A stretch of 64,000 nucleotides of DNA from Motilibacter peucedani (GTDB lineage: Bacteria > Actinomycetota > Actinomycetes > Motilibacterales > Motilibacteraceae): positions 186,001 to 250,000 of the forward strand of contig NZ_RBWV01000010.1 of assembly GCF_003634695.1 (NCBI RefSeq), in the 5' to 3' direction. The notes under the pieces are model-generated. The model saw only the letters and a program-made list of their open reading frames with translations. It ran no database searches and had not been told where the DNA came from. Below, piece after piece: positions 1,179 to 24,759 of the stretch; positions within the stretch are counted from its first letter, which is position 1; each line of letters starts with the position of its first letter. The position numbers and the translations under genes were made by a program.

Positions 1179-1341
1179 GGAATCTCGGCCGCACGGTTCG
1201 ACATCGCTCTCCCGCTCGTCAGGACCTCGACTGCGATCGTACCGGGGCTGGCTGGTCAGGCAGCCGCCGGCGCTGAGCAACTCCAGCTCTCGTGGGGCGT
1301 GGTGCCGCGGCCCAGTCGTCCGCACGGGCTAGGTTGGTCGG

Positions 1342-2802: not shown

Positions 2803-2908
2803 AGAACCTTCAGGCCTGCCCTTAGGACCGCGTGTCGGTGAAGTGCAGGTTCACGAGTACGCGGACCGATTCACCGCTAGAGTGACCGTAGAGAGCTGGG
2901 AGTCACTC

Positions 2909-6933: not shown

Positions 6934-7247
6934 GTGTTCGACGTCTTGACTTAGCGTGGGCCAACTCAGCGCAGAAGGCCGACATCGTGGTGGAGATCGC
7001 TGCCCGACTCGGGCTGGCTGCTCCGCCCATGTCGTCAGGTTCTACCGAGCCCAAACTGATCTTCACGATGGTGAACGAGCGTCTAGGGCTAGGACTGAGT
7101 GCCAGGCTGGCCAAGCCCGAGATGGCTAGGGCGATAGTCGAGGCAGCCGGAGACCACTGGCACCCGGACTTCGAGTCACGGGGAGCGACTGTGACAAAGA
7201 ATGGCTTGCTTGCGGTTCTCGACGCCGTCGCGTTCTTCCTCGCCTGA
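6930..7247 (+). CDS. Small conserved-looking protein of the Z1 operon, unknown function
   Basis: This 105-residue protein starts at the GTG overlapping the upstream stop (GTGA, 4 bp), so translation is probably coupled. It has no Walker motif, signal peptide or membrane segment. The centre reads as a compact basic/hydrophobic helical fold ('GSTEPKLIFTMVNERLG', then 'KPEMARAIVEAAG'), and the tail 'GATVTKNGLLAVLDAV' looks like a final helix. It could be a small DNA-binding or specificity subunit, but nothing in the sequence proves that. It is the last gene of operon 1. Coding is supported by tight spacing and sustained codon bias. I assign no function. Confidence 0.55.
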   Translation: MSVRRLDLAWANSAQKADIVVEIAARLGLAAPPMSSGSTEPKLIFTMVNERLGLGLSARLAKPEMARAIVEAAGDHWHPDFESRGATVTKNGLLAVLDAVAFFLA

Positions 7248-8283: not shown

Positions 8284-8301
8284 CCCCCACGACGGTGGGG
8301 G
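8284..8301. terminator. G/C hairpin without U-tract
   Basis: Perfect 7-bp stem (CCCCCAC / GTGGGGG) with a GACG loop. No T-run follows, so a factor-independent terminator is uncertain. It lies 300 bp before the second defence operon, within decayed sequence. Confidence 0.3.
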
Positions 8302-8606
8302 GTTGGGGAAGGCAAGCTGCGGGCGCCGGCTAGCGCATCCCTGCTCGCGGCTCCGCTGGCTCCTAACGGCGACGCGCAACTCAGGAGCCGCGTTGATAGA
8401 GACCGACAACCCATTTGGCGGTCGCAGGCGACTCAGACGGCCGGACCCTTTGCCGATTCCAAAGCCATGGAGACGCCCGCCCGTACGGCACCAGATCCCT
8501 CGGGCCCGTTGCGGCAGTCGTGAGCCAGCGGCCCTCCGTGCGGACGATCGCGCTGCCCGAGCAACGACAGCCGTGGTCGACAGGTGTCCCTGGACGTCCA
8601 CCTCTT

Positions 8607-11600
8607 ATGCCAAGTGCCGCTGCGATGTCAGTGCCGGCACGTACAGTGCCGCCTGTGGCCGACCCAGTCCCGCACCGCCTCGACTGGGATGCCGCCATCC
8701 TGCGCGCGTGCAAGGCGCCCTCGCCTGACCAGCGGCACTACCTGTACGTCGATGCGGACGTGCTGGCGGGAGCCAGCGGGCTGCCGCCGCGTGAGGCAGT
8801 CGAGGCCTTCACGCGGTACTTCCGCAACACCCGCGGAGCCAGGCCGTTCGACAATGCACTGTCCCGTGCCCGCAGGTGGCGCCAGCGTGGCTACCCTGGT
8901 ACACCGCCGCTGGTCTCCGCCCTGGCGATGACGGTCCTCGCCGTTACCGAAGACCCGGTGGCGGCGGGAGCCGGTGTCTACCGCACCCAGAACGCGCTGC
9001 TCGGCCTTGACCCGGTAGCAGCCGCACCTCCCGGCTACGGCGAGGACGTCCGTGCCCTGTGGCTGCTGTGGAACGAGTGGCTGGCCGGGCCTGGCGCCGA
9101 GAACGGGCTGCCCAGCGCACGAACTCACGCGCACTGGACTCTGCAGGGCTGGGCCCGGAGCCAGGCGGTAGTCCGCTACCGGGACCGGCTGACCATGGAG
9201 GACTTCTTCGCACAGCAGGCACTGCACCTCCGCGGTCCCCAGCCCGCGACCGCGTTGCTGTCCGAGCTCACCCAGTGGCTGCGCTACCGCGGCCAGGTGG
9301 GAGAGTCGCTGCTGGAGCGGCTCGACGACGAGCCCTCCCGGGAGATCATCTGCGATGTCCTCGCAGAGGAGGCTGCCCGATGGACGGGGGTGCCGCGCGC
9401 CCGCCGATCACAGGGGGAGATCCGGGGCCTACTCGCGTACGACGAGCTCACCGAGTCCTTCGCTGGTGCCGTCACAGTCGACGACTCCTTGCACGGGGTC
9501 CCGCTGGACACCGGTGGGGGCAACTACACCCCCAGCAACTTTGACCAACTGGTCTTGCTCCAGCTCGCCACCCCACCGCAGCAGCTGCTGGGCACGGGCG
9601 CGGTGCACGAACTCGCACCCGGGCGACGGGTCCGCGTCGGTGGCGAGCCGGTCTACGTGCTGCGCGACGACCCCGGCCTTGGCGTCCTGCTACAAGCGCG
9701 GACCGCGACTCTCCACGACCGTGGGCTGCGACTGCTCGGCAGCACCGCTCACCTCAAGGCCGTCGCTAGAGAGCTTGCGCTGCCCGAGGCGAGAACCTGC
9801 CTGGCCGCGCCTGGCTGGTCCTGGATGACTGGACTGCCTGCCTCCGCAGACCCCGCGACTCTGCACAAGCTCCGGCTCGGGTTCCTGGTCAGGCAGCGGC
9901 CCGCCGGTGTGGTTCTGACCGGCGGTCTGCCTGTGCGGTCCGGCATCTACCTCAGCGGCCACGAGCCCGACGTATCTCTGCCCGACGGAGCTGGTCTCGT
10001 CCTCGACGGCGCGCCCGCAGACGTCGAGCACCCGGTGCCGTGGGCCGGCGGCCTGCTGGGGGCGCCTGGCACCGTACGGCTGGCCGACCTCGCCCTTGAC
10101 CCCGGCACACACTCCGTCGGCAGCGAGGGAGAGCAGCACAAACTGACGGTCGTCACCCACGTGCGCGAGGCTGCTGCGGACGGCAATGTGGCCTGGAGAC
10201 TTCCGCTGGGACCCGGTGCCGAGCCTGTCCGCGGTGCGGAGGAGCCCAGGCTGGCCGGTGCGCTGCTGTCCGGCAGTCCGCCCGCATACAGGCTCGTCGT
10301 CCAGCTTCGCCCCGGCCAGGAGCTCCTTGCCCTCTGCGAGGACGGAGCCCTGCTCCAGGTCTTCCCGTCGCTGCCTGCATGGCTCTCCCGCGCAGGGCTC
10401 ACCAGTTGCTCGGTCGACGTCCTGGCCGCGCTGCGCACGCTCGACTCGCCGGCCGCCTTTGTCCTCGTACGCAGCCCGCATAGCAAGCGCATCTTCGGCG
10501 TGGAGATCCCTGCCCAGTACACCCCGCTGCCTGGCCGAGCGCGGACTGCACCCCGTCCCGAATTAGTTGGTCAGGTCTTCGGGGTCGATTGGTCCGGCCT
10601 ACCGGCAAGCGCCATGCGCCGTCGAAGCGACCTCGTCTCCCGGCTCGTGGGATGGGGAGCGCCGGCCCTGCTCAAGGCGTCCGCAAAGGAGCCTGCAAAG
10701 GCGGCCCTAGCGCTGCGCAGCGACATAGTGCAGGGCGCAGTGCCTGCGAATCCCTACGACGACGTCCTCATGTGGCTCTCCGAGAGAGAGTCCGCGCGCT
10801 GCTCGGCGGCGCAGTTCCGCGACGCCTGGGCATGGGCCTGCCTGCGCCACGGGATGAGCGACCTGGCTGAGCAGTGGCGCTTCGCACTGAACGACCTCGC
10901 TGGTCTCGGGCACGTCGAGCGCGACTACGGCCGCCGGCAGGTCAGCGTCGCCCCCGCGGCTCTGCTCGACCTCTCCAACGCAGCCGGCCTTGGGCTGCTC
11001 ACCGGCGCCCGCCCGGTACGGCTCCTCGAGCGGCTTGCCGACGACGAGGATCTCGACGAGGGCGTCGCCGCTGCTGCCGCAGGGCTCGACCTGCACCTGC
11101 GCACCCCCCTCAAGCACGGACTGCCGGCCGGCCCGACCGCCGTCTACGTCGACTGGGACCGACGCAACGCCTCCCAGATGACGGCAGCCCTAGCCGCGCT
11201 TGGCGTCACCCACGTCGGGGCCGTCAGCGACGCCCTATTGGCAGCCATGCCGACCAAGGGGTCAGTCCTCAGGGCGAGCCCCGTGCTCGAGACCTCTCCC
11301 TCGCGTGTCAGCAAGCTGCGCGAGCGGACCGGGCACCTCACCTACCGATACGTAGAGCGGGCAAACGACACCGCACGCGGCCTCTACCGCTACCAGCTCG
11401 CGCACGGTGACGTCTTCGGCTGGCGCGCCGCCGACCAGGGCCCGCTGGTCCGCGTCGACCGGCACCTCGGGGTCTGGCTCGACACCGCCGCGCGAGAGAC
11501 CACTCCGGTCGTTGCCCACCACGAGGTGCGGCAGGCCCTCCTCGTCCCCGCACACCTCCCGCTGCCCGCGCTGGCACACCGTGCCCTCATCCTGCGGACC

Positions 11601-11753
11601 GGCCTGCCGCCGTGGACCAGCCACGGGCTACGCCTCGACGGCCACGGTCCGGGGCACGACTACCGGGTCTACGACAACGTCAACGGACCCACCGCAGAAG
11701 CGATCTTCGCCGTCCTTGGGCTAGCCTCCCACTCGAGCAACGACCAGCTCTAG
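8607..11753 (+). CDS. Large unknown protein preceding a DruE-like helicase (DruH-like by position)
   Basis: I do not recognise a named family in this 1048-residue protein. No Walker A, nuclease core or membrane segment is apparent. The region from about residue 725 to 785 (around 'WRFALNDLAGLGHVERDY' and 'RQVSVAPAALLDL') looks like a winged helix. The rest alternates helical and beta-rich stretches rich in Leu, Pro and Arg. Its stop lies 16 bp before the helicase start, so the pair is co-transcribed. A ~1000-residue unknown directly upstream of a ~1800-residue DUF1998 helicase is the arrangement of Druantia type III (druH-druE), but similarity to DruH itself was not checked. The start is uncertain: ATG 8607 was chosen, with ATG 8625 or GTG 8655 possible. 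Confidence 0.6.
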   Translation: MPSAAAMSVPARTVPPVADPVPHRLDWDAAILRACKAPSPDQRHYLYVDADVLAGASGLPPREAVEAFTRYFRNTRGARPFDNALSRARRWRQRGYPGTPPLVSALAMTVLAVTEDPVAAGAGVYRTQNALLGLDPVAAAPPGYGEDVRALWLLWNEWLAGPGAENGLPSARTHAHWTLQGWARSQAVVRYRDRLTMEDFFAQQALHLRGPQPATALLSELTQWLRYRGQVGESLLERLDDEPSREIICDVLAEEAARWTGVPRARRSQGEIRGLLAYDELTESFAGAVTVDDSLHGVPLDTGGGNYTPSNFDQLVLLQLATPPQQLLGTGAVHELAPGRRVRVGGEPVYVLRDDPGLGVLLQARTATLHDRGLRLLGSTAHLKAVARELALPEARTCLAAPGWSWMTGLPASADPATLHKLRLGFLVRQRPAGVVLTGGLPVRSGIYLSGHEPDVSLPDGAGLVLDGAPADVEHPVPWAGGLLGAPGTVRLADLALDPGTHSVGSEGEQHKLTVVTHVREAAADGNVAWRLPLGPGAEPVRGAEEPRLAGALLSGSPPAYRLVVQLRPGQELLALCEDGALLQVFPSLPAWLSRAGLTSCSVDVLAALRTLDSPAAFVLVRSPHSKRIFGVEIPAQYTPLPGRARTAPRPELVGQVFGVDWSGLPASAMRRRSDLVSRLVGWGAPALLKASAKEPAKAALALRSDIVQGAVPANPYDDVLMWLSERESARCSAAQFRDAWAWACLRHGMSDLAEQWRFALNDLAGLGHVERDYGRRQVSVAPAALLDLSNAAGLGLLTGARPVRLLERLADDEDLDEGVAAAAAGLDLHLRTPLKHGLPAGPTAVYVDWDRRNASQMTAALAALGVTHVGAVSDALLAAMPTKGSVLRASPVLETSPSRVSKLRERTGHLTYRYVERANDTARGLYRYQLAHGDVFGWRAADQGPLVRVDRHLGVWLDTAARETTPVVAHHEVRQALLVPAHLPLPALAHRALILRTGLPPWTSHGLRLDGHGPGHDYRVYDNVNGPTAEAIFAVLGLASHSSNDQL

Positions 11754-11769
11754 GAACCGGGGACGCGAG

Positions 11770-14700
11770 ATGACCGAGGCACCACCGCCGCTGAGCGTGC
11801 TCGGTCTGACTGACTACCTGCAGCAGTGCTTCCTGCGCTTCTACAACACCGCCTACGAACTGCGCGACACCGCCGTGCGCGCCGAGCGGCAGGCGCTGCT
11901 TACCCAGCCCGGCACCGTGTTCGCCGAGCCCTTCCTCGAGCTCATGCCAAGCTACGCGAGCGACACAGCCACGCTGCACGACACCATGGCCGCGTTCGGG
12001 ACCCCCGAGGCCGCGTCCCTTGTACACGCCGGGCTGCTCGATCAGGACTACCCCTACACCCACCAGGCCACAGCGCTACGTCACTCCCACGACGGACGGG
12101 ACGTCGTCGTCGCGACCGGAACCGGCTCAGGCAAGACCGAAGCCTTCCTGCTGCCCGTCCTCCAGCGGCTCGTCGCAGAGTCCCGAACCTGGGAGCCCGA
12201 GACCACCACCAGCGTCCCCTGGTGGTCCGGTGCCGGCGACTACACCGCCTCCCGCCGACCAGGTCCCGGCCGGCCCGCCGCGGTCCGCGCCCTGCTCCTG
12301 TACCCAATGAACGCCCTCGTCGAGGACCAGATGGTCCGACTGCGCAAGTCGCTTGACTCCCCTGAGGCCCGGGCGTGGCTGAACGAGCACCGGCCGGGCA
12401 ACCGGTTCTACTTCGGGCGCTACACCGGCCGCACCCCCGTCCGCGGCACCAGCGCCACGGCGAGCAAGGACCGCACCAACGAGCTGCGCAAGCTGATGCG
12501 CTCCGCTGACCGCCGCCACCAGAAACTCCTCGACAAGATCAAGAAGGACCCGGACGCGGAGCGCAGCCGGTACTTCCTACCCGCGGTGGACGGCGGCGAG
12601 ATGACCAACCGGTGGGACATGCAGGCCGCCCCACCAGACATCCTCATCACCAACTACAGCATGCTCAGCATCGCACTCGGCCGCAGCGACGAGCAGAACC
12701 TGCTCGCTGCCACGCGTGAGTGGATCGCGGCCTCCCCGAGCAACATCTTCACCCTGGTCGTCGACGAGCTCCACATGTACCGGGGTACCGCCGGAACAGA
12801 AGTCGCCTACCTCCTGCGCCGCCTGCTTATGGCCCTCGGCCTCGACACCCGCCCCAGCCAACTCTCCGTCATCGCCACCTCTGCCAGCATCCACGACGAC
12901 GCCGAAGGACGGTCCTTTCTTAGCCAGTTCTTCGCCCGCCCCGCCAGCCGCCCCTTCTCGTTCGTCACCAGCACACACGAGACCGAGGACGGCAGCGACC
13001 TCCTCGAGCGCCTCGGCCAGGACCTGACCACCTCCACGGACGCCGCCGACGTCTCCCTGCCAACCGACGGGTCGCTGCGCCGCGCCCTAGCGCACGCGTG
13101 GACGGAACCAGGGGGCAAGCTCAAGCCACGCTCCTTCGCCGACGCCGCCCGAAGGGCGTTCCCCGCTAGCCGCACCCCCGAGCAGACGCTCGAAGCCCTC
13201 GTGGGCCGGCTCGCTTACGAGCACACCCCCGACGCCCGCTTTCGCGCGCACGTGTTCGTGCGCACCCTGCAAGGACTCTGGGCCTGCAGCGACCCCTCCT
13301 GCCCCCGCGACGCACAGCCACAGGAGGCCGAGCCCCGCTCGGTCGGGCGCATCTACTCAAGCCCCCGGTTCACCTGCGACTGCGGCTCTCGCGTCCTCGA
13401 GCTGCTGTACTGCCAGTCCTGCGGCGAGACGCTCCTCGGTGGCTACGTCACCCGCGTCAAGGGCAAGGAGTTCCTTGTCTCCACTATGAGCGCGCTTGAG
13501 GACCTTCCCGACGCCGCACCAGCCGGCCGCAACGCCGACAACTACCGCGTCTACTGGCCCAGCACCCGCACCCCCGCCGTCGCCGCCTGGACCGCGACCG
13601 GCACGAAGCTCCCCGACGACCCCGTCGCCCCCGGCTACCGATTGAGCTTCGCCAAGGCCAACCTGGCACCCGGAAGCGGAAAGCTCGACCGCCCCCAGCT
13701 CGGCCACACCGGCTACACCTTCCGCATCGAGTCCCCGAACGTACCCGGCGCACCCGCCCGCATGCCCGCCTTCCCCACGCGGTGCCCGTCCTGCGGAGAC
13801 AACTGGGAGTACACGAACAAGGGGGCCGTCGAAGACCCGCAACGCAGCCGCTCGCCCATCCGCACCCAGGGCGTCGGCTTCAACCGCGCCAACCAGGTCC
13901 TCACCGGGGCCCTCAAGCGACGCCTCGACAGCAGCCTCGTCGTCTTCTCCGACAGCCGACAAGGTGCCGCCCGCGTCGCCGCGGACCTCGAGCTCGCGCA
14001 CTACCTCGACCTGGTGCGCGCCCTCGTCCTAGTCGAGCTCGAATCCACCAACGGTGACCTCGCGCTCATCCAGTCCTACCTCGGGGGGGATGAGTCCGCC
14101 GAGCCGACCGCAGCATGGGAGCGGCTCGAGGCCTCCAACCTCAACGCGGCCAACGCCATGTTCAAGAGATCCCTCGGCAAGCAGCTCAGCGACGTCGACT
14201 CGGCCGCCATCAGGCAGGCAGAGGCAGCTCTCTCCGGTACCCCCAGCCTGATCGACCTCGTCAACGCCACCGAACCGCGCCTGCTCACCCTCGGCGTCAA
14301 CCCGGCTGGGGCGGCCAACTCCATGCAGCAGACCAAAGCGAAGGCCCCCCAGCCCTGGACGGAGCTCTACTCCTGGACGAGCAGCCCCGCCCGCGACCGC
14401 GGCGCCGCACTCGACGCTCCACAAGCAGCCCTGCTCGCCGACCTTCGACAGGCGCTGAGCAAGCAGGTCGCTCGCACCGTCTTTGCCGGCGGAGACCGGG
14501 ACATCGAGGCGCTCGGGCTCGCGCATGCCGTTCCCCCGCACAGCATCACGCTGCCCGGTCTGAGCAGCGACACCTCACATGAGATGGCGTGCTCCGTCAT
14601 CCGCATCATGGGCCGCCGCCGCCGGATGGCCTGGTTCAGCGACCACCGACGGTCCTGGCCGCGCGAGGTCACCGACTACGTCAAAGCGGTCGTCCAGGCC

Positions 14701-17130
14701 AACCCCAGCGCACCGGACGCGCAGACCCTGCTCGACGCCCTCGGCGTCACCCTCGGGATCGGCGACCAGAACGGCTACCAGCTCCAGCCGGACAAGGTGC
14801 GACTGACGACTCCCGCTCAGCCACGCACCGTGCACCGGTGCCTGACCTGCCGGACCAGGCACCTGCATCCCAGTGCGGGAGCGTGCGTCGCCTGCGGTCG
14901 CGCCCTCGGAGCGGAGCCTTGGCCCGAGAACCTCGAGCACGAGGCCTACTACTCCTGGCTGGCCAGAGACGGAGGCGGGGCATACCGGCTGCATTGCGAG
15001 GAGCTCAGTGGGCAGACGGACCCGCTCGAGGCCCAGGCGCGGCAGGCTCAGTTCCAGCAGGTGTTCCTCGACGGCGACGAGACCCCGGTGGTCGACCAGG
15101 TCGACGTCCTGTCCGTCACCACGACCATGGAGGCAGGCGTCGACATCGGTGCGCTGCTCGGCGTCGTGATGGCGAACATGCCCCCACAGCGCTTCAACTA
15201 CCAGCAGCGCGTCGGGCGAGCCGGCCGCCGCAGCGAGCACCTCGCCGTTGCGCTGACCGTCTGTCGCGGGGCACGCAGCCACGACGAGTACTACTTCTCT
15301 CACCCCGAGGCCATTACCGGAGACAAGCCACCGCAGCCCTTTCTCGACATGCGCTCGGGCCCCATCCTGCGACGCGCCTATGCCGCCGAAGTCCTGACTC
15401 GCGCCTTCGCCGACCTTTCCGCCGACCTCCCCGACTTCGCGCCTGGCCGCTCCATCCACGGCCAGTTCGGCAGCAGGCAAGGCTGGCTCGACACCCCACG
15501 CCTTGCCCACCTGCTGCAGCGGTGGCTCGACGGCCACGGCGGCGACCTGCGCACCATCGCCGTCCGCCTGCTCGCGGCGACCGCCCACGAGCCTGACAGC
15601 GACCGCACGCTGTCCACGTGGGCAACTACCAGCCTGGTCCCCGAGATCACCCGGATCGTCCGCGAGGGGCGCGGCTCAGAGCTCAGCGAGACCCTCGCCC
15701 GCGGCGGCCTCCTGCCGATGTTCGGGTTCCCCACCAACACGCGACTGCTATACACCGCCCGACCCAAGGACGGCCGGGAGGCCAGCACCCTGGACCGCAA
15801 CGACGACATCGCAGTCAGCGAGTTCGCCCCCGGCAGCGAGGTCGTCCGCGACAAGGCCATCCACACCGCCATCGGCCTCGTCGGCTACTGGCAGACCGGC
15901 AACGGGCACTGGAAGCCCGACCCTGACCCCCTTGGGCCCGTCGACAACGCCGGTATCTGCCGTGCCTGCCTCAGCATTACCAGTAAGCCCACCGACACCT
16001 GCCCCACCTGCGGAGCAGGAGAGCCTCTGTTCCAGCAAACGCCGCTCGCCGAGCCCGCCGGCTACCGCACCACCTACCGCCCCCGCGACTACGAGCAGCT
16101 CTCCGATCCCACAGCACGCGCCGCCCAGCCCAGGCTCAGCCTTCCCCCGGTGGACGGCCGCACGGTCGAGAACGCCACCGTGCGCGTCGCGAACGCCGAG
16201 ATCGTCGCCGTCAACGACAACAACGCCAAGCTCTTCCACTTCACGCGTGCGATGCGCATCTACCAGGGGAAGGCGAGCCCTGCCGACGGGCTCGTCGAGG
16301 CGAGCAGCCTCGTCGCCTACGGCGACGACCGTCCAGCGCTCGACAACCACCAGCGCATCGGCGACGTCCTGCCCGGAGTCGCCCTGGCCGCACGCCGCCG
16401 CACCGACGTGCTCGTCCTCGCAGCGGCGGGTACGCCGCCCGAGTTCACCATCGACATCCGCACCCCCGCCGGAAGAGGAGCCTGGGCCTCCCTGGGCTAC
16501 CTCGTCCGCGACGCAGCAGTGAAGTGGCTCGACATCGGACCTGGGGAGATCGAAATCGGTGTTCACCCTGGCCAGCCTGCCGCAGACGGCAGCGTGGTCC
16601 CCGGCGAGCTCTTCGTCGCCGACACCCTCGCCAACGGAGCCGGCTACGCCGTCCGGCTCGGGCAGGACCCGCACGCACTGCTCGAGCATGCCGGCGCCTA
16701 CGCCAACGAGCTCTCCCGGCACGGTGACCCTGCCTGCGACAGCAGCTGCTACCAGTGTCTCCGGGACTACAGCAACAGGCCGTGGCACGCACTGCTCGAC
16801 TGGCGCCTCGCGTGCGACCTGCTCGACCTTCTCAGCAAGCGGCCCGTCCCGCTCGACAGCCACAGAGATCGGGACCAGCGAGCCCTCGACGCCCTCGCAC
16901 GCGATTTCAAGGCCGAGCCGCTGCCCACCGGACCACTTCCGGCGCTCAGGGCCAGAAACGGCACAGTCCTCGCTGCCACGCATCCCTTCGAGGACACCGC
17001 GCCACACACCGTCGCACCGCGGGTAGCGGCGGCGCGAGCAGCGTGGCCGACAGCCAGACTGGTCAGCAGCTTCGACCTCGTGCGTCGTCCCGAGAGCATC
17101 GTTGGGCACCTCGTGGGGAACTCAACCTAG
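11770..17130 (+). CDS. Giant DEAD/DEAH-box helicase with DUF1998 domain (DruE/MrfA-like)
   Basis: This 1786-residue SF2 helicase has Walker A 'ATGTGSGKTEAF' at 115-126, 'LLYPMNALVEDQM' (motif Ia), 'VVDELHMYRG' near 331 (DEVH-like box) and 'IATSAS' (motif III). The second RecA lobe has 'TTTMEAGVDIGALLG' near 1116 and 'QQRVGRAGRR' near 1145 (motif VI). Several Cys pairs suggest zinc ribbons (about 506-555, 675, 1023-1045 and 1397-1415). A C-terminal DUF1998 block ends with 'CDSSCYQCLRDYSN' near 1656. This layout and size match Druantia DruE and the DNA-repair helicase MrfA family; DrmB of DISARM carries DUF1998 as a separate protein. It probably translocates on DNA and cooperates with the proteins encoded on both sides. 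Confidence 0.85.
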   Translation: MTEAPPPLSVLGLTDYLQQCFLRFYNTAYELRDTAVRAERQALLTQPGTVFAEPFLELMPSYASDTATLHDTMAAFGTPEAASLVHAGLLDQDYPYTHQATALRHSHDGRDVVVATGTGSGKTEAFLLPVLQRLVAESRTWEPETTTSVPWWSGAGDYTASRRPGPGRPAAVRALLLYPMNALVEDQMVRLRKSLDSPEARAWLNEHRPGNRFYFGRYTGRTPVRGTSATASKDRTNELRKLMRSADRRHQKLLDKIKKDPDAERSRYFLPAVDGGEMTNRWDMQAAPPDILITNYSMLSIALGRSDEQNLLAATREWIAASPSNIFTLVVDELHMYRGTAGTEVAYLLRRLLMALGLDTRPSQLSVIATSASIHDDAEGRSFLSQFFARPASRPFSFVTSTHETEDGSDLLERLGQDLTTSTDAADVSLPTDGSLRRALAHAWTEPGGKLKPRSFADAARRAFPASRTPEQTLEALVGRLAYEHTPDARFRAHVFVRTLQGLWACSDPSCPRDAQPQEAEPRSVGRIYSSPRFTCDCGSRVLELLYCQSCGETLLGGYVTRVKGKEFLVSTMSALEDLPDAAPAGRNADNYRVYWPSTRTPAVAAWTATGTKLPDDPVAPGYRLSFAKANLAPGSGKLDRPQLGHTGYTFRIESPNVPGAPARMPAFPTRCPSCGDNWEYTNKGAVEDPQRSRSPIRTQGVGFNRANQVLTGALKRRLDSSLVVFSDSRQGAARVAADLELAHYLDLVRALVLVELESTNGDLALIQSYLGGDESAEPTAAWERLEASNLNAANAMFKRSLGKQLSDVDSAAIRQAEAALSGTPSLIDLVNATEPRLLTLGVNPAGAANSMQQTKAKAPQPWTELYSWTSSPARDRGAALDAPQAALLADLRQALSKQVARTVFAGGDRDIEALGLAHAVPPHSITLPGLSSDTSHEMACSVIRIMGRRRRMAWFSDHRRSWPREVTDYVKAVVQANPSAPDAQTLLDALGVTLGIGDQNGYQLQPDKVRLTTPAQPRTVHRCLTCRTRHLHPSAGACVACGRALGAEPWPENLEHEAYYSWLARDGGGAYRLHCEELSGQTDPLEAQARQAQFQQVFLDGDETPVVDQVDVLSVTTTMEAGVDIGALLGVVMANMPPQRFNYQQRVGRAGRRSEHLAVALTVCRGARSHDEYYFSHPEAITGDKPPQPFLDMRSGPILRRAYAAEVLTRAFADLSADLPDFAPGRSIHGQFGSRQGWLDTPRLAHLLQRWLDGHGGDLRTIAVRLLAATAHEPDSDRTLSTWATTSLVPEITRIVREGRGSELSETLARGGLLPMFGFPTNTRLLYTARPKDGREASTLDRNDDIAVSEFAPGSEVVRDKAIHTAIGLVGYWQTGNGHWKPDPDPLGPVDNAGICRACLSITSKPTDTCPTCGAGEPLFQQTPLAEPAGYRTTYRPRDYEQLSDPTARAAQPRLSLPPVDGRTVENATVRVANAEIVAVNDNNAKLFHFTRAMRIYQGKASPADGLVEASSLVAYGDDRPALDNHQRIGDVLPGVALAARRRTDVLVLAAAGTPPEFTIDIRTPAGRGAWASLGYLVRDAAVKWLDIGPGEIEIGVHPGQPAADGSVVPGELFVADTLANGAGYAVRLGQDPHALLEHAGAYANELSRHGDPACDSSCYQCLRDYSNRPWHALLDWRLACDLLDLLSKRPVPLDSHRDRDQRALDALARDFKAEPLPTGPLPALRARNGTVLAATHPFEDTAPHTVAPRVAAARAAWPTARLVSSFDLVRRPESIVGHLVGNST

Positions 17131-17356
17131 AGACACGCGGCAAGTAGTGGCGTCAGGAGCGGTCACTTCCAGGGGACCGCGCAGCGTCTCAAGGGCGCGA
17201 GTTGCGCCGCCTCCTCTCGACGTGGCACTTCAGTCGGCCGTCGCAGCGACGACACCCGGAGCCGGCTCTCAGGTCCGTGCATGTGCACCGCTGGGATGAC
17301 AAGGTAGGCCGATCGGACGACAGAGCCTCCGGGCTCGCACGCGCGGAGGAGACAAC
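17131..17356. other. Intergenic gap before the DUF262 gene
   Basis: A 226-bp gap within the otherwise tightly spaced second operon. No gene or strong hairpin is seen. It may hold an internal promoter for the DUF262-Z1-DUF4420 part. The only clear signal is the ribosome-binding site 'ggagga' just before 17357. Confidence 0.35.
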
Positions 17357-19231
17357 GTGAGCCAGCACCCCGTCGGTGCCGCCGAGGACGACCCCCGGGA
17401 GGCGCTGGAGCGCGGCATCGCCGAGCTCCTTGCCGAGCTGTCGACAGCGACGGTAATGCCAGCCGGAGTTACGCCCTCCACATCCCCTCTTACGGCCGAC
17501 GCGGTGCGCTTCACTGACACCAGCTGGCTCAGCCACCTGGTGGACAACCAGGGGTGGCTTCGTCTCACGCCCCGGCTCCAGGTCCAGGCCACCGTGGAAG
17601 AGTTCCTGTGCCTGCTAGGGCAGGGCCTGGGCTTCGAGGACCCGCAGCAGGCGATCGAAGGAACGGGCGGGGGAAGCCGACTCTCCTTCATCGGTCTCGA
17701 GCGGCTCAACGACCGTGCTGAGCGAGCCGTCGTGCTCCAGCGGATGTTCGACGAGGCGGCCGAGCAAGGTGACTCCGTCCACGCCGCCAGCCTGCAGTGG
17801 CAGGAGGCCTGGAACGCAGCTCCTGAGGACAACGAGTCGGACGAGGAGGAGCCCGCCACCGGTCCCGTCACCGCGACGGCTGACATCTGGCCCATCATGA
17901 ACTTCAGCGGGCACGCAGAGGACGGACGTCTCAACCTCAGCCCGTCCTACCAGCGCGACGACGTCTGGGCGACGAAGGACTCCCAGATGCTGATCGAGTC
18001 GATCCTCCGGGGGATTCCCCTACCGTCGATCATCGTGCTCAAGCCCGAGCTTCCCGACGCCCCCTATGAGGTCGTCGACGGCAAGCAGCGGCTGACCTCG
18101 ATCCTGCGCTTCATCGGGCGTCACCCCCACGCCGTGTCACACGTCGAACAGACGGAGGCCAGGTACCCGAACAGCGACCTGCTCAGCCTGTTCCAGAACG
18201 ACTACCCCCGCTTCCGCCGTGCGTGGAAGAACCACACCGGCCAGCAGCTGACGGCAACCGTCGAGCGGGACCTGCATTTCCCGTTCAAACTCCGCGCCGA
18301 GAGCCGCGCGCTCCGTGGCGGACTCGAGCATCTGCAGGGCAAGTACTACACCCAGATCAAGCGCGAGCAGATCCAGATCGCCGAAACCCGCTACGAGGTC
18401 CGGCACGTCTTCGAGCGCGTCACCAACTACAAGATCCCCGTCATCGAGTACTCCCAGGCGACACGGCGCCAGATCCACGAGGTGTTCAACCTGTACAACC
18501 GGCAGGGCGTGCAGCTCAACGCGGAGGAGATCCGTAACGCCGTCCACCACCACCTGCCTTTGGTTCCCGGACTGCTGATCACCGCAGGGGACAGCGAGCC
18601 TATGCACGTGGTCGCGCCGTTCCTCGCGCCGGCATGGGGCAAGCTCTCCCTCGTCGGCCCCGCACTCCAGGACTACGGCTTCGGGACCAGCCGCTACCGG
18701 CGCACCAAGGTACTCACGTGGATCGCCGCGCTCCTGCTCCACGACACCCCCAAGCAGCAGTCGACGGCTCACCACCTCGACTCCTTCTTCGAGGCTGTCG
18801 AGGGGGACCCAGCCGGCCCCACGCCGCTGCTGCGGCGTGAGGACGTCGTCATCGAGGCGCTACTCCTACTGGCCGAGGGGATCGAGGCCCACGGCGCAGT
18901 CCCCGGGGCGTGGGGCCCCTCACTCTCCATCGGCAGCAAGTGGCAGGAGCTATCCCTGGTCGCGACCCTGGTGGGCGTCACGATCGGCGCCACCCTGCAC
19001 GGTGCGGACACGGTCAACGTGCTCGAGAAGCACCAAGACGAGATGAAGCAGGCCGCGCGCGGGTGGAAGCGGCTTGAGAACGCCCAGACATCCAGCCAGT
19101 GGGGATTCATTAAGCAGGTGGCTCTCGGCGTCGCAGAGGTGCTGCACGCGGATCTCGACGAGGCATCCCGGCAGCTCGACGCGCGCTTCGGCTCGTCCGG
19201 CATCAAGACGCTGCGCCGCGAGCGGCACTAG
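17357..19231 (+). CDS. DUF262 (ParB/GmrSD-type) family protein
   Basis: DUF262 domains are ParB-fold nucleotide-dependent nucleases, best known from GmrS/GmrD modified-DNA restriction and the SspE and BrxU defence proteins. The signature is complete: 'LSPSYQRDDVW' near 195, 'LIESILRGIPLPSIIV' near 215-230 and 'YEVVDGKQRLTSIL' near 236-249, containing the DGQR-like DGKQR box. There is a 180-residue N-terminal extension with an acidic linker before the domain. The C-terminal half is helical, and no GmrD-type HNH (DUF1524) motif is visible. The GTG at 17357 follows a good 'ggagga' site. The stop is two bases before the next GTG, so coupling with the Z1 gene is likely. Confidence 0.85.
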   Translation: MSQHPVGAAEDDPREALERGIAELLAELSTATVMPAGVTPSTSPLTADAVRFTDTSWLSHLVDNQGWLRLTPRLQVQATVEEFLCLLGQGLGFEDPQQAIEGTGGGSRLSFIGLERLNDRAERAVVLQRMFDEAAEQGDSVHAASLQWQEAWNAAPEDNESDEEEPATGPVTATADIWPIMNFSGHAEDGRLNLSPSYQRDDVWATKDSQMLIESILRGIPLPSIIVLKPELPDAPYEVVDGKQRLTSILRFIGRHPHAVSHVEQTEARYPNSDLLSLFQNDYPRFRRAWKNHTGQQLTATVERDLHFPFKLRAESRALRGGLEHLQGKYYTQIKREQIQIAETRYEVRHVFERVTNYKIPVIEYSQATRRQIHEVFNLYNRQGVQLNAEEIRNAVHHHLPLVPGLLITAGDSEPMHVVAPFLAPAWGKLSLVGPALQDYGFGTSRYRRTKVLTWIAALLLHDTPKQQSTAHHLDSFFEAVEGDPAGPTPLLRREDVVIEALLLLAEGIEAHGAVPGAWGPSLSIGSKWQELSLVATLVGVTIGATLHGADTVNVLEKHQDEMKQAARGWKRLENAQTSSQWGFIKQVALGVAEVLHADLDEASRQLDARFGSSGIKTLRRERH

Positions 19232-19233
19232 CG

Positions 19234-22062
19234 GTGTCGCCAGCACCTCCAGGGGAGGGCGGACTTCCCGTCGTGGAGCGCGTCCGCATGCGGCGACCGG
19301 AGCCGCCTGCCGCGGCGTCCTGGTGGGAGTCCTACCGGTCGACGCTCGACGCGTCCTCCGTTTCCAGCACGGGCAAGTTCGTCCTCGAGATGGACAGCAG
19401 GTACATCCTGCGCCACGGGGTGCTCGGAGCAGGGCCGGCCGGCCACGCCGACTGGCCGGCGACGCGTGTCCGGCGCGGACTCGTCATGGGCTCAGTGCAG
19501 TCGGGCAAGACGGCCTCCATGCTGGGTGTCTCCGCACTCGCCCTCGACGAGGGCCTCGACGCCCTTGTCGTACTCGCCGGAACGCGTGTCTCCCTCTGGC
19601 AGCAGACCATGCACCGCCTGCGCACCCAGCTTGACCTGCCCGAGGGCGCCCACCCCGACCAGCGCCGGATCCTGCGACCGCGTGCTGACAGCGGCGACGG
19701 CGAAGTCCCGCTGTCGCGCGTCTACTCCGTCATGGGGCCTGAAGTACGGCGAGCCCTACAGCTGCGGCGGCCCATGCTCATTGTAGTGATGAAGAACGCC
19801 CACCACTTGCGTGCACTGCGCGACCTCATGCACCAAGAGGTCATCCCCGCCCTCAACGCCGCCGCACGGCCCTTCCATCTCATGGTCCTCGACGACGAGG
19901 CTGACGAAGGCTCCATCCTCGACGCTCGCGCCGAAAGCGGGCTCGATCCCCGGCTCGACGACCTCAAGCAGATCCCACGTGCGATCGTCGACCTCTGGGC
20001 GAGCCGGCCGCACGACGGGTCCTCCGCCTCCCCGCACCTCTACGTGACCTACGTCGGCTACACGGCGACACCACAGGCCAACTTCCTGCAGGCCGGTTAC
20101 AACCCCCTCGCCCCCCAGGACTTCGTCATCGCGCTGCGGACGCCTTACGACCGCGGAGAGACCGAGCCCCGCACCACCACATACCGGGAACGGGCCAAAC
20201 TACGCGGCTACTACACCGGGGGGGAGGCGTTCTACCGTTCCGTCCGCGACCCCGCCCTCACCGTCGAGGCCAGCGGCAACCCACGGGCCGACATCGCTGA
20301 CGCGGTGCGCGCGTTCCTCGTCGCCGGTGCTTTGCGACTGTGGCGCGACCAGGGCTCGCGCCTCACCCCCAGCGAAGCAACCAGCACGTCGTTCGGCACC
20401 CGCGACGAGGCGTCGCGCAGGTCCCCTGAGCCGCATTCCATGCTCCTGCACCCCTCAGGCACCGTCTCCGACCACTTCGACGCGGCAGCCGAGGTCCTCG
20501 CCTGGGCCAACGGAGGCGACAAGGCAGCCGCCGACGCTGCCGTGGCAGCCGGCGAACGGTCCCTTCCCCTCGACCAGCTCCGGCAGCGCGTACTCGACGA
20601 GGACGCCGAGTGGTCAGCCTGGCTGCAGCGCTACCGCGGCACGGCAGGCGCAGTGCGCAGAGCCTTCGACCTGCAGAACGAGCCTCCGGTCCCGGCCGAC
20701 GAGCAGTGGCCCGAGCTGCGCCAGCTGCTCCTCGACGAGGTCCTGCCCGCCGCGCACCTGTCCATCGTGAACAGCGACCCCCGGACCGATGACCGTCCGC
20801 GCTTCGAGCCCGAGCAGCGCGCCGACGGCTCCTGGGAGGCGCCGGCTGACCTCTTCACAATCTTCGTCTCCGGCAACGTCATGTCACGCGGCCTCACACT
20901 GGAAGGCCTTACGACCACACTGTTCCTGCGCCACGCTGACGAGCCGCTCGCCGACACCCAGATGCAGATGCAGCGCTGGTTCGGCTACCGCGGGGCGTAC
21001 CTCGAGCTTTGCCGCGTCTTCCTGCGCCGGGACCAGCTCGACCTGTTCCGGGGCTATCACGAGGCGGACGAGGCGCTCAAGCGCGGCATCATCCGCAGCA
21101 TGAACAGCGACCCGGACACTGCTCCCTCACCTCAGGTGCTGCAAGGGTCGCGCTTCCTCGCCACCGGCAAGCTGGCGAACCTTCGGACGGTTCCGCTGTC
21201 TCCCGGGCCCTGGCCGTTCATCCGCCTGGTCAACGACCGCGCCAACGACCCAAACGCCCACGTCGTCGCCGACCTCTATGCAGGCCGCGACTCTCACGAG
21301 GTCCTGGTTCCCGGACGCCTCGAGCCCGCAGGTCGTCTCCTGAACGCGCCGCTGTCGCTGCTCGAGATCGCCGAGCTCCTTGAGCAACTGCGCTACGACG
21401 CGTACAGCCCCGCCCGCTCCGGGTGGCACGCGGAGCGCTGGGCCTCCCTCGAGGCCCACCTCGGGCTCATCGTCCCTGACGAGGGCGGCGGCGCACCCGC
21501 GCCGGCTCCGCTTTACCGCCCGCCGGGAACCCAGGGATCGGACGAGCAGCAACACCCGTGCCCGTACCAGATCGCGGCCTACCTGAGACTGTGGGACGCA
21601 TGCCTCACACGCCATGCTCGAGGCCTTTTCCCGACCGACGACGCCAGCACCCCGTGGTCCATGCTGGATCTGGCCCGAAAGCAGCGCGAGCAGCCTCGGT
21701 TCCACGTAGGGATCCGCTACGGCCGCGGCAGCGAAGCGACGCGCGGCCCGCTCGCCGACTTGGCGTTCCCTGTGCGCACCATGCAGCGCCAAGTTGTGCA
21801 TGGTGAGCTCGTCGCCACATGGGGGAGCCGCAATCAGGCCCGTGACGGGAGCTACCCGGGCGACCAGTACTTCGACTACCACGACCGCCGCCAGGATGCG
21901 CCACCGCCGACGTCGGGGGAAACGCCTTGGCGACCCGCGGGCGCTCCTGGTCTCCTGCTGTTCCACATCGTTGAGCGCGCTGCCAACACGCCGTCTGTGG
22001 CCCTCGGCCTCGGGCTCCCGCTGGGTGGGCCTGATCAATTCGCCGCTCTGGCGGCCTCGTGA
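19234..22062 (+). CDS. Z1-domain ATPase/endonuclease-like protein (second copy)
   Basis: This full-length Z1 protein (942 residues) carries Walker A 'GSVQSGKTASM' near 86-96, Walker B 'VLDDEADEGS' near 219-228, 'GYTATPQANFLQ' near 275, and the Z1 signature 'NVMSRGLTLEGLTTTLFL' near 549-566 followed by 'QRWFGYRG'. It is clearly diverged from the copy at 2909-5002, so the two are not a recent duplication. The start is GTG at 19234, two bases after the DUF262 stop; a GTG at 19273 is an alternative. In known systems Z1 works with a GHKL ATPase and the DUF4420 nuclease. Here the DUF4420 partner follows directly, but no GHKL protein is present. Confidence 0.9.
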   Translation: MSPAPPGEGGLPVVERVRMRRPEPPAAASWWESYRSTLDASSVSSTGKFVLEMDSRYILRHGVLGAGPAGHADWPATRVRRGLVMGSVQSGKTASMLGVSALALDEGLDALVVLAGTRVSLWQQTMHRLRTQLDLPEGAHPDQRRILRPRADSGDGEVPLSRVYSVMGPEVRRALQLRRPMLIVVMKNAHHLRALRDLMHQEVIPALNAAARPFHLMVLDDEADEGSILDARAESGLDPRLDDLKQIPRAIVDLWASRPHDGSSASPHLYVTYVGYTATPQANFLQAGYNPLAPQDFVIALRTPYDRGETEPRTTTYRERAKLRGYYTGGEAFYRSVRDPALTVEASGNPRADIADAVRAFLVAGALRLWRDQGSRLTPSEATSTSFGTRDEASRRSPEPHSMLLHPSGTVSDHFDAAAEVLAWANGGDKAAADAAVAAGERSLPLDQLRQRVLDEDAEWSAWLQRYRGTAGAVRRAFDLQNEPPVPADEQWPELRQLLLDEVLPAAHLSIVNSDPRTDDRPRFEPEQRADGSWEAPADLFTIFVSGNVMSRGLTLEGLTTTLFLRHADEPLADTQMQMQRWFGYRGAYLELCRVFLRRDQLDLFRGYHEADEALKRGIIRSMNSDPDTAPSPQVLQGSRFLATGKLANLRTVPLSPGPWPFIRLVNDRANDPNAHVVADLYAGRDSHEVLVPGRLEPAGRLLNAPLSLLEIAELLEQLRYDAYSPARSGWHAERWASLEAHLGLIVPDEGGGAPAPAPLYRPPGTQGSDEQQHPCPYQIAAYLRLWDACLTRHARGLFPTDDASTPWSMLDLARKQREQPRFHVGIRYGRGSEATRGPLADLAFPVRTMQRQVVHGELVATWGSRNQARDGSYPGDQYFDYHDRRQDAPPPTSGETPWRPAGAPGLLLFHIVERAANTPSVALGLGLPLGGPDQFAALAAS

Positions 22063-22075
22063 GGAGCAGACGACG

Positions 22076-23185
22076 ATGACTCCACCGCAGCGCAGTTACG
22101 AGCACCAGCTTGAGCTGGTGCTCGGCCTCGAGCGGCCAGCCGACCCCAACGAACGGCTCATCACCTGGTGCGCGGGATCCGGGCCGGTCGGCCTCGCCCG
22201 CGACTCCGCAGGCCACATCGAGATCTTTCTCGAGGGCCCACCGCTACCGGCCAGATCGCGCACGGTGCGCGATGCGCTGGAGCACCAGCCGTGGCAGCGG
22301 CAGGCAGACGCGCCGGACCTCCTTGCGTCTCGGCTGCTGCTGCCAGCCGCGGGGCACTATGACCAGGTTGCCGCATTCCTCTGCACGGAACTTCTGCGCA
22401 ACGGAGCCGAGGAGGACGTCCGCGCCGCATTTCAGCTCACCGAGCCGGTGATCGAGCTTGCGCTCGAGCGCCTGCGCATCGCTGACCGCGCTCTGCTCGG
22501 CCTTGCCGGCGAGCTGCTCGTCCTCGAGGCACTGCTGCGGTGCGCCGGCGACCACCACGTCGAGGCCCTGCTCGCGTCGTGGACGGGGTACCTCGAGGCG
22601 CCGCGCGACTTCCAGGTTGGAGACGTAGGCGTCGAGGTCAAGACCACCACCCGCACCTCGTCCTCTCACCTCGTGCAGGGGTACCAGCAGGTTGACGTCG
22701 GGCACGGCGTTGATGGGGTCGATGAGCACGCCCTGCTCCTCGTGAGCATCGGGCTTGAGTGGGCTCACGTCGACGAGGACGAGAGCACCTCGACGACGCT
22801 GCCCGGACTCGTCGAGGCCATCTTGGGCCGCGTTCACGCCACGATGGGGCGCGCGGCCGGCCCCGCGGTCGCGCGCCTGCTCGCCAACACCGAGGCCTAC
22901 GGGGAGCCGAACCAGATCGGCTACCAGCACCTGACGATGGCCACGAACGCGGCGTACACGCGACGCTTCCGCCACACGTTCGTCCGGTGCTACGACATGT
23001 CGGACGGCCTGATCGAGCTTCTACGGGAGCACGACATCCGCCGCGCCACTCACGTCGACCCGGACTCCGTCAGGTACCGCCTCAGCCTGCCCGACGAGGT
23101 GCGTGGGGACATGAACCCGGTCCGCGGGCTCACATCCGCCGTCTCCGAGATCCTGCGCCGCTCCTACGGCGGGGGGACGCCGTGA
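22076..23185 (+). CDS. DUF4420 PD-(D/E)XK motif protein
   Basis: This 369-residue protein shows the DUF4420 (PF14390) core: 'GLAGELLVLEALL' near residue 141, then 'PRDFQVGDVGVEVKTTTR' near 176-193. The Asp and the E-x-K pair form a PD-(D/E)XK nuclease site, and all appear intact. The family is the usual nuclease partner of Z1 proteins in restriction-like operons. The ATG at 22076 lies 13 bp after the Z1 stop with a 'gaggag' ribosome-binding site over the stop. It is the last gene of the second operon and the likeliest DNA-cutting subunit there. The frame is open further upstream inside the Z1 gene but has no ribosome-binding site. Confidence 0.87.
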   Translation: MTPPQRSYEHQLELVLGLERPADPNERLITWCAGSGPVGLARDSAGHIEIFLEGPPLPARSRTVRDALEHQPWQRQADAPDLLASRLLLPAAGHYDQVAAFLCTELLRNGAEEDVRAAFQLTEPVIELALERLRIADRALLGLAGELLVLEALLRCAGDHHVEALLASWTGYLEAPRDFQVGDVGVEVKTTTRTSSSHLVQGYQQVDVGHGVDGVDEHALLLVSIGLEWAHVDEDESTSTTLPGLVEAILGRVHATMGRAAGPAVARLLANTEAYGEPNQIGYQHLTMATNAAYTRRFRHTFVRCYDMSDGLIELLREHDIRRATHVDPDSVRYRLSLPDEVRGDMNPVRGLTSAVSEILRRSYGGGTP

Positions 23186-23680: not shown

Positions 23681-23686
23681 GCTAGC
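23681..23686. repeat. IS481 target-site duplication, left copy
   Basis: GCTAGC immediately before the left terminal repeat. The same hexamer follows the right end at 24754-24759. This fits the NCTAGN target preference known for IS481. Because the hexamer is a palindrome, it could also be read as part of the inverted repeats. Confidence 0.7.
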
Positions 23687-24753
23687 TGTAGTGCCCACGG
23701 ACCTTGTTGACGGCGTGGCTACTTGATCAAGGGCGAGACCTCCGGCCGTAGTGGGTGTGTCTAGGACTCACCACGCCGGAGGTCTCGTGTCGCAGGTTAT
23801 GCCGCAGCTGTCGGTCTACGGGCGCTGGCTGCTGGTCCAGCGCGTGTTGGAGGGTCGTCCCGTCGCGCACGTCGCGGCCGGGCTGGGGGTGAGTCGGGCG
23901 ACCGGCTACAAGTGGTGGCGGCGCTGGCGTGAGGAGGGCGTGGCGGGGCTGCAGAGCCGGTCGAGCCGGCCGCGGACCAGCCCGCGGCGTACCAGCGCCG
24001 AGGTCGAGGAGCAGGTCCTCGCGTTGCGACGGGAGCGCCGGCTTGGGCCGGCCCGGATCGCCGGGATCGTGGGCCTGCCCGCCTCGACGGTCCACCGGGT
24101 CCTCACCCGGCACGGCGTGCCACGGCTGGCGTGGCTGGACCGGCCGTCGGGCACGCCGATCCGCTACGAGCGCGACGAGCCCGGTGATCTGGTCCACGTC
24201 GACATCAAGAAGCTCGGCAAGCTGCGCGACGGCGGTGGCTGGCAGGCCCACGGGCGCGGCAGCGCAGCAGACCTCGCCGCTCACCGCGCCCGCTCCGCCG
24301 GCCAGCGGGTCGGGCACGAGTACGTCCACAGCGCGGTCGACGACCACTCCCGGCTCGCCTACTGCGAGGTGCTGCCCGACGAGCAGGCCGCGACCGCCGT
24401 GGCGTTCTGGTCCCGGGCGCAGGCGTTCTTCACCGCCCACGGGATCACCGTCCGACGGGTGCTGACCGACAACGGGGCCTGCTACCGCAGCCACCTGTGG
24501 GCCGCGGCCCTGCGCTCGGCCGGCATCACACACAAGCGGACCCGCCCCTACCGGCCGCAGACCAACGGCAAGGTCGAACGCCTCAACCGCACCCTGCTCA
24601 CCGAGTGGGCCTACCGCGAGGTCTTCACAAGCAACCAAGAGCGCACCGCGGCCCTGTCATCCTGGCTCCACAACTACAACCACCACCGCGCCCACACCGC
24701 ACTCGAAGTCAAGCCCCCAGTCAGCCGCGTCAACAACCTCCCGGGGCACTACA
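23687..24753 (+). mobile_element. Intact IS481-family insertion sequence, 1067 bp
   Basis: Terminal inverted repeats of about 25 bp begin TGTAGTGCCC on both ends and agree at about 21 of 25 positions (left 23687-23711, right 24729-24753). A single transposase gene fills the element, and a 6-bp GCTAGC duplication flanks it. It is inserted in decayed sequence next to the defence island. All parts look intact, so the element may be recent and active. Confidence 0.85.
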
Positions 24754-24758
24754 GCTAG
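23787..24758 (+). CDS. IS481-family transposase
   Basis: DDE transposase of 323 residues. An N-terminal helix-turn-helix ('HVAAGLGVSRATGYKWWRRW') and an HTH_29-like linker are followed by the rve/DDE integrase core: 'DLVHVDIKKLG', 'AVDDHSRLAY', 'VLTDNGACYRS' and 'PQTNGKVERLNRTL' carry the catalytic acidic residues. The closing 'YNHHRAHTAL' is typical of the family. The GTG at 23787 has 'ggagg' five to nine bases upstream. The TAG stop (24756-24758) lies in the duplicated target hexamer, outside the element proper, so the insertion site supplies the stop codon. The frame is complete with no internal stop. Confidence 0.9.
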   Translation: MSQVMPQLSVYGRWLLVQRVLEGRPVAHVAAGLGVSRATGYKWWRRWREEGVAGLQSRSSRPRTSPRRTSAEVEEQVLALRRERRLGPARIAGIVGLPASTVHRVLTRHGVPRLAWLDRPSGTPIRYERDEPGDLVHVDIKKLGKLRDGGGWQAHGRGSAADLAAHRARSAGQRVGHEYVHSAVDDHSRLAYCEVLPDEQAATAVAFWSRAQAFFTAHGITVRRVLTDNGACYRSHLWAAALRSAGITHKRTRPYRPQTNGKVERLNRTLLTEWAYREVFTSNQERTAALSSWLHNYNHHRAHTALEVKPPVSRVNNLPGHYS

Positions 24759-24759
24759 C
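24754..24759. repeat. IS481 target-site duplication, right copy
   Basis: GCTAGC directly after the right terminal repeat, identical to 23681-23686. It contains the TAG that ends the transposase frame. Confidence 0.7.

What the first reader, a model, noticed from the sequence alone, without database searches (positions are those of the whole stretch)
8607..23185. Druantia-like DruH/DruE pair fused to a Z1-DUF4420 restriction module
A 1048-residue unknown plus 1786-residue DUF1998 helicase resembles Druantia type III, but the operon continues with DUF262, Z1 and DUF4420 genes at 2-13 bp spacing. Druantia types are not known to me with these partners. The helicase may replace the GHKL ATPase as the motor that recruits the nucleases.
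Basis: partly seen in the sequence, partly recalled or inferred. Interest (0 to 1): 0.72.

Follow-up and report, generated by a model that had tools for sequence, protein, structure and literature searches.

The report
Druantia defence beside separate restriction cassette
This stretch of an actinobacterial genome is an antiviral defence island in which a known kind of phage-defence system (Druantia, closest to type IV) sits next to a separate DNA-cutting cassette that elsewhere occurs without it; the parts are mostly known, but this neighbour pairing was not seen in 80 relatives.

Summary
The genes are real, but most of the reading changes. The 1048-residue "DruH" is a long DruF whose last ~320 residues are DruL (PADLOC DruF4/DruL4; no DruH hit). 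The helicase is DruE4 (1739 bits). The core is therefore Druantia type IV, not III. It is followed, after 226 bp rather than 2-13 bp, by an intact DUF262-Z1-DUF4420 cassette. That cassette occurs without Druantia, behind its own C5-methyltransferase, in another actinobacterium and on a Neorhizobium plasmid. None of 80 DruE relatives has Z1 or DUF4420 within 10 kb. DUF262, not DruE, occupies the slot that the GHKL ATPase fills in MT-GHKL-Z1-DUF4420 operons, and Z1 carries its own SF2 motor, so DruE is not needed as a substitute motor. Best reading: a defence island with a Druantia IV core, a Z1 restriction cassette, and a second Z1 cassette upstream that holds the genome's only C5-methyltransferase. 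Two by-products: DruL is the detached C-terminal third of long DruF (18/18 long DruFs), and the gene slot after DruE is variable (DruK, NERD-UvrD, PtuA+HNH, EcoRV-like), so functional coupling here is unproven but not excluded.

The parts
8655..11753 (+).
   Evidence: PADLOC DruF4 4.8e-30 and DruL4 9.6e-31, no DruH; 36-39% identical to long DruFs of L016 and L017; DruL profile hits residues 701-1023 at 9e-47; first ~23 residues from 8607 are disordered in the AlphaFold model
11770..17130 (+). DruE, YprA-family SF2 helicase with MZB/DUF1998-type domain
   Evidence: PADLOC DruE4 1739.5 bits over residues 9-1780; DEAD, Helicase_C, MZB; motifs GTGSGKT, DELH, QRVGRAGR; PDB relatives 9wae (2e-155), 9tu7 (3.5e-52) and YprA/MrfA 6znp
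17131..17356 (.). 226-bp gap that separates Druantia from the cassette
   Evidence: no promoter or terminator consensus and no unusual fold
17357..19231 (+). DUF262 / GmrSD_N protein, DGKQR motif, no GmrSD C-terminal nuclease domain found
   Evidence: Pfam GmrSD_N 2.5e-26; 44% to L128, 34% to L009; motif
19234..22062 (+). Z1b, SF2 helicase with Z1 domain
   Evidence: Pfam Z1 2e-29; Walker A GSVQSGKT, DEAD, DTQMQMQRWFG; 49% to G186 full length, 41% to L009
22076..23185 (+). DUF4420 PD-(D/E)XK nuclease
   Evidence: Pfam DUF4420 5e-15; invariant E146, D178, E187-x-K189 in five relatives; 46% to L128 and 31% to L009
1342..2802 (+). C5-cytosine methyltransferase, the only one found in the genome
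   Evidence: Pfam 2.5e-66; genome-wide search finds one; PADLOC DruM2 1.1e-178
678..1280 (-). Vsr mismatch endonuclease
   Evidence: Pfam Vsr 5.2e-19
2843..5002 (+). Z1a, second Z1 helicase (upstream cassette)
   Evidence: Pfam Z1 3.1e-32; 36% to the Z1 of the GHKL-type operon L129
4995..6083 (+). ParB-like protein
   Evidence: 28% over 284 aa to a gene of the Neorhizobium cassette, 5.5e-29; weak ParB HTH matches; PADLOC PD-Lambda-5_A 1e-19
6076..6933 (+). Unknown protein with a possible PD-(D/E)XK-like stretch, candidate nuclease
   Evidence: 29% to the next gene of the Neorhizobium cassette, 5.6e-17; alignment; no Pfam match; nuclease reading is inference
6930..7247 (+). Small unknown ORF (105 aa) ending the upstream cassette
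   Evidence: ORF list, no Pfam match
23681..24759 (+). IS481-family insertion sequence with 32-nt inverted ends
   Evidence: rve_3, LZ_Tnp_IS481; inverted repeat I1
25387..27021 (+). NERD-UvrD helicase, relative of a gene found beside other Druantia loci
   Evidence: Pfam NERD and UvrD; 50-52% to copies in L025 and L060, 25-27% to the gene next to DruE in L093-L095

Best explanation
This is a chromosomal defence island in which a Druantia type IV system (long DruF-DruL fusion plus DruE helicase) lies upstream of a self-contained, ATP-driven restriction cassette (DUF262 - Z1 helicase - DUF4420 nuclease). The two are most likely separate systems that ended up side by side. In the cassette the DUF262 protein would sense or gate, the Z1 protein would translocate, and the DUF4420 nuclease would cut DNA not protected by C5-methylation, by analogy with the Z1 motor in CglI/NgoAVII. 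In Druantia, DruF-DruL would be the trigger or adaptor and DruE the helicase acting on phage DNA intermediates. Shown: gene identities, intact motifs, independent occurrence of each part, and a single C5-MTase in the genome. Inferred: the biochemical roles, and that the island's MTase protects against one or both Z1 cassettes.
For: DruE4, DruF4 and DruL4 matches; no Z1 or DUF4420 near any of 80 DruE relatives; the same DUF262-Z1-DUF4420 order behind a C5-MTase without Druantia in G186 and on a Neorhizobium plasmid; DUF262 in the slot of GHKL in MT-GHKL-Z1-DUF4420; 226-bp gap, against overlapping or abutting partner genes in most loci with DruK; intact catalytic motifs; Z1 proteins as ATP-driven motors with a separate nuclease (PMC4267653).
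Against: Same orientation and same codon composition (GC3 0.83-0.88) of the two halves, unlike the upstream cassette (0.70-0.76), so they may have arrived together. The cassette lacks its own adjacent MTase, which its relatives have. A variable slot after DruE hosts nucleases in many loci, so recruitment of this nuclease is conceivable.
Confidence: 0.68

Rival explanations
1. One composite system: DruF-DruL and DruE detect and open phage DNA, and the DUF262-Z1-DUF4420 genes, in the variable slot after DruE, supply the nuclease that type IV DruE lacks, in the place DruK occupies elsewhere.
For: Slot after DruE holds DruK (PD-(D/E)XK) in 20 of 80 loci and other nuclease-linked genes in more; window has no DruK; similar base composition; DruE of types I/II carries an inactivated nuclease domain (PMC12458937).
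Against: 0 of 80 relatives show it; cassette is complete without Druantia elsewhere; 226-bp gap; 22 of 80 loci have no codirectional gene within 250 bp after DruE, so a downstream nuclease gene is not obligatory.
Confidence: 0.14
2. One Z1 restriction system in two blocks: the upstream MTase - Z1a - ParB-like - candidate nuclease and the downstream DUF262 - Z1b - DUF4420 belong together and share the single MTase, with Druantia lying between them.
For: On the Neorhizobium plasmid relatives of the MTase, DUF262, Z1b, DUF4420, ParB-like and next gene stand in one operon; only one C5-MTase in the genome.
Against: Different codon composition of the two blocks (GC3 0.70-0.76 against 0.84-0.88); there are two Z1 proteins instead of one, and Z1a is closer to the GHKL-operon type (36% to L129); G186 has the cassette without the ParB-like gene.
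Confidence: 0.12
3. The DUF262-Z1-DUF4420 cassette works without a protecting MTase here and attacks modified phage DNA (type IV-like restriction), while the MTase is Druantia's self mark.
For: All 10 loci of the window's DruE clade, window included, have a C5-MTase in the stretch examined, as do 44 of 80 overall. PADLOC DruM2 is the best match of the MTase. DUF262 is the GmrS-type domain of modification-dependent enzymes (established knowledge of GmrSD).
Against: Relatives of the cassette have an adjacent MTase, the layout of a methylation-protected system. The window's MTase is nearest to one in a GHKL-Z1 operon (46%, L129) and is 44% to the one beside Druantia in Actinotalea, so it cannot be assigned by similarity.
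Confidence: 0.06

Closest known systems
Druantia type IV (DruE, DruF, DruL; PADLOC, PMC8565338)
   Same: DruE4-type helicase and DruF/DruL homologues directly upstream in the same order
   Different: DruF and DruL are one polypeptide; downstream DruK nuclease absent, another cassette follows
Druantia type III
   Same: YprA-family DruE helicase preceded by one large protein
   Different: the large protein is DruF-DruL and not DruH; DruE3 models score far lower (393 against 1739 bits)
MORC/GHKL-Z1-DUF4420 restriction operons (Iyer 2008, PMC2292703) and the MZA system (MzaC, MzaD)
   Same: Z1 SF2 helicase followed by a DUF4420 nuclease, usually with a C5-MTase
   Different: DUF262 in place of GHKL; scores far below the curated MzaC/MzaD cut-offs
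CglI / NgoAVII restriction-modification systems (PMC4267653)
   Same: C5-MTase, DEAD-Z1 motor protein and separate nuclease gene
   Different: nuclease is DUF4420 PD-(D/E)XK, not PLD-B3; additional DUF262 protein

Membership tests
Druantia type IV | DruE helicase | tested here: met
   DruE4 1739.5 bits, whole length
Druantia type IV | DruF | tested here: met
   DruF4 4.8e-30; homologous to DruF of relatives
Druantia type IV | DruL present | tested here: met
   DruL4 9.6e-31 to residues 782-1102 of the ORF from 8415; fused, not a separate gene
Druantia type IV | phage defence activity | not testable with these tools
   needs phage assays
Druantia type III | DruH | tested here: not met
   no DruH model among PADLOC hits of the protein at E <= 0.01
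Druantia type III | DruE3-type helicase | tested here: not met
   DruE3 393 bits against DruE4 1739 bits
Druantia type II | DruM methyltransferase and DruG | tested here: inconclusive
   a DruM2-like C5-MTase lies 5.9 kb upstream of DruF; no DruG match among the scanned proteins, but not every ORF was scanned
MZA system | MzaC and MzaD at NCBIfam equivalog cut-offs | tested here: not met
   MzaC 108 bits (cut-off 1500), MzaD 25.8 bits (cut-off 420)
GHKL/MORC-Z1-DUF4420 restriction operons | GHKL ATPase gene before Z1 | tested here: not met
   DUF262 occupies that position
GHKL/MORC-Z1-DUF4420 restriction operons | Z1 motif DThhQxuRhFG and nuclease E-D-ExK | tested here: met
   DTQMQMQRWFG; E146, D178, E187-x-K189
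   0 of 80
   needs RNA and phage assays

The most novel reading that the evidence does not exclude
One C5-methyltransferase gates a three-engine island: a Druantia IV helicase complex and two Z1 restriction motors read the same methyl mark, and the DUF262-Z1-DUF4420 cassette has been plugged into the variable nuclease slot after DruE, giving a Druantia whose cutter is a methylation-sensitive, ATP-driven Z1 nuclease.
Probability: 0.12. Interest if true: 0.65.

Novelty: new variant of a known kind. Interest (0 to 1): 0.4.

Why it matters
It corrects a plausible misassignment (type III) and shows that DruL, the protein used to define Druantia type IV, is the detached C-terminal third of long DruF, so the type II/IV border is partly gene fission or fusion. 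It also shows that the slot after DruE is exchangeable (DruK, NERD-UvrD, PtuA-HNH, EcoRV-like, here possibly a Z1 cassette) and that C5-MTases recur beside Druantia II/IV loci, in all 10 of the window's clade. That makes it testable whether Druantia IV recruits a nuclease and uses a methyl mark for self-recognition. The DUF262-for-GHKL swap in Z1-DUF4420 operons is a small variant worth naming.

Tried and rejected
Type III (DruH) reading: rejected by the PADLOC scan. GHKL replacement by DruE: rejected, DUF262 occupies that slot. MZA membership: rejected at curated cut-offs. An early script used out-of-frame starts for the window's DruF, DruL, Z1a and DUF4420 queries; those results were discarded and redone in frame; the MT, DUF262, Z1b and ParB-like queries of those calls were in frame and are used. 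I first labelled the 4995-6083 protein NaeI-like without evidence; searches show a ParB-like protein. Promoter/terminator search and RNA fold of the 226-bp gap: nothing above chance. Plasmid search with the DruF protein and viral-contig search with Z1b: no match; phage records gave only partial Z1 matches. Foldseek of the DruF-DruL model (mean pLDDT 78.9, pTM 0.42): no PDB match (all E > 0.1). Empty-site comparison: homology with same-family genomes stops just after trkA at about 430-465, right border not found. NERD-UvrD as the original DruE partner later displaced by the cassette: attractive but unproven.

Full report
WHAT IS THERE. The window lies in contig 10 of a 4.19-Mb genome; named relatives of its DruE are mostly actinobacterial. 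Five codirectional genes occupy 8655-23185: a long DruF (1032-1048 aa), DruE (1786 aa), DUF262/GmrSD_N (624 aa), Z1 helicase (942 aa) and DUF4420 (369 aa).

TYPE OF DRUANTIA. PADLOC gives DruE4 1739 bits over the whole helicase, against 1567 (DruE2), 630 (DruE1) and 393 (DruE3). The upstream protein matches DruF4 at its N-terminus and DruL4 at its C-terminus; DruH is not among its matches. PADLOC's authors define type IV as DruE+DruF+DruL (PMC8565338). A profile of separate DruL proteins matches the C-terminal ~300 residues of all 18 long DruFs, including those of Bacteroidota and Proteobacteria, and PADLOC's own ~1000-residue DruF2 models cover a long DruF end to end. In a DruE tree the window groups with Actinotalea, Dactylosporangium and Micromonospora loci (support 1.0), nested among actinobacterial loci with separate DruF and DruL, so its fusion looks independent of the type II-like long DruFs.

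THE CASSETTE ON ITS OWN. Z1b and DUF262 have relatives along nearly their whole length in G186 and on a Neorhizobium plasmid (where the MTase and Z1 reading frames are each broken in two). Both have C5-MTase - DUF262 - Z1 - DUF4420 in that order and no Druantia in the stretches read. In G165 and a Nocardioides the order is C5-MTase - GHKL - Z1 - DUF4420 followed by PglW and PglX, so DUF262 and GHKL are alternatives in the same slot. Iyer et al. (PMC2292703) described the MORC operon type with an SFII helicase bearing a DThhQxuRhFG motif and an E-D-ExK nuclease; both signatures are intact here. Z1 N-proteins of CglI/NgoAVII hydrolyse ATP and drive a separate nuclease (PMC4267653). The cassette therefore needs no outside motor.

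ARE THE TWO LINKED? Of 80 DruE relatives (best of 563), none carries a Z1 or DUF4420 gene in the fetched flanks of up to 10 kb, while 44 carry a C5-MTase. Some flanks are cut by contig ends (in 7 loci no gene follows DruE). Z1 occurs anywhere in 5 of 34 actinobacterial Druantia genomes. In one of these (Nocardioides) and in G165 a GHKL-type Z1-DUF4420-Pgl array lies about 20 kb from a long-DruF Druantia, so the two kinds can share islands. Base composition puts Druantia and the cassette together (GC3 0.83-0.88), apart from the upstream Z1 cassette (0.70-0.76) and the host (about 0.93). Adjacency is thus real but so far unique, and co-acquisition is possible.

THE SLOT AFTER DruE. In relatives the next gene is DruK, a PD-(D/E)XK nuclease (20 loci), an f6-f9-Hsp70 set (9), PtuA-like AAA+HNH (4 of the 80, plus G243), NERD-UvrD (3) or an EcoRV-like enzyme (1); 22 loci have no codirectional gene within 250 bp. 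DruK and NERD-UvrD genes mostly overlap or abut DruE. The window has no DruK. Bell et al. (PMC12458937) state that DruE of types I and II carries an inactivated Vsr domain, which leaves room for an outside nuclease; I did not test this for the window's DruE. The idea that DUF4420 fills this role is therefore reasonable but unsupported by recurrence.

THE METHYLTRANSFERASE. The genome holds one detectable C5-MTase, at 1342-2802, beside Vsr, Z1a, a ParB-like protein and a candidate nuclease. The ParB-like and candidate-nuclease proteins have homologues in the Neorhizobium cassette. All 10 loci of the window's DruE clade have a C5-MTase in the stretch examined. Whether it marks self for Druantia, for one Z1 cassette or for both cannot be decided from sequence.

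LITERATURE. Full-text searches found no paper that links Druantia with DUF4420-type Z1 cassettes: the one paper naming both Druantia and the Z1 domain lists them separately, and the one Druantia+DUF262 hit, on domains shared by defence systems, I did not open. The library lacks most subscription journals. That the MZA system combines MutL-type ATPase, Z1 and AIPR proteins is from memory.

VERDICT. A Druantia type IV member with a fused DruF-DruL, beside an autonomous DUF262-Z1-DUF4420 restriction cassette in a defence island. The composite-system idea is possible but disfavoured.

Noticed in passing
L129 with L013 (G165), and L146, L147, L060 (Nocardioides): A conserved array C5-MTase - GHKL - Z1 - DUF4420 - PglW - PglX - two further large proteins, with a long-DruF Druantia following in the same order, 52-70% identical in two lineages.
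   Followed up: partly
window 40608-41045: A second Vsr gene without a neighbouring C5-MTase.
   Followed up: no
window 25387-27021; L025 256-1974; L060 21688-23343: The same NERD-UvrD helicase (50-52% identical) lies within about 10 kb of Druantia IV in three actinobacterial genomes; a distant relative directly follows DruE in three proteobacterial ones.
   Followed up: partly
window 34718-36808: A 696-aa ORF in a stretch of low G+C (0.56-0.60 per kb at 35-37 kb against about 0.72 around) with no Pfam match; may be another insertion.
   Followed up: no
L033 18368-20050 and 8 relatives: A three-gene set ending in an Hsp70-like protein directly after DruE in Streptomyces and relatives, without PADLOC match.
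   Followed up: no
window 7248-8606: A 1.3-kb stretch between the upstream cassette and DruF without a convincing gene; it reads like transposase remnants (not tested).
   Followed up: no
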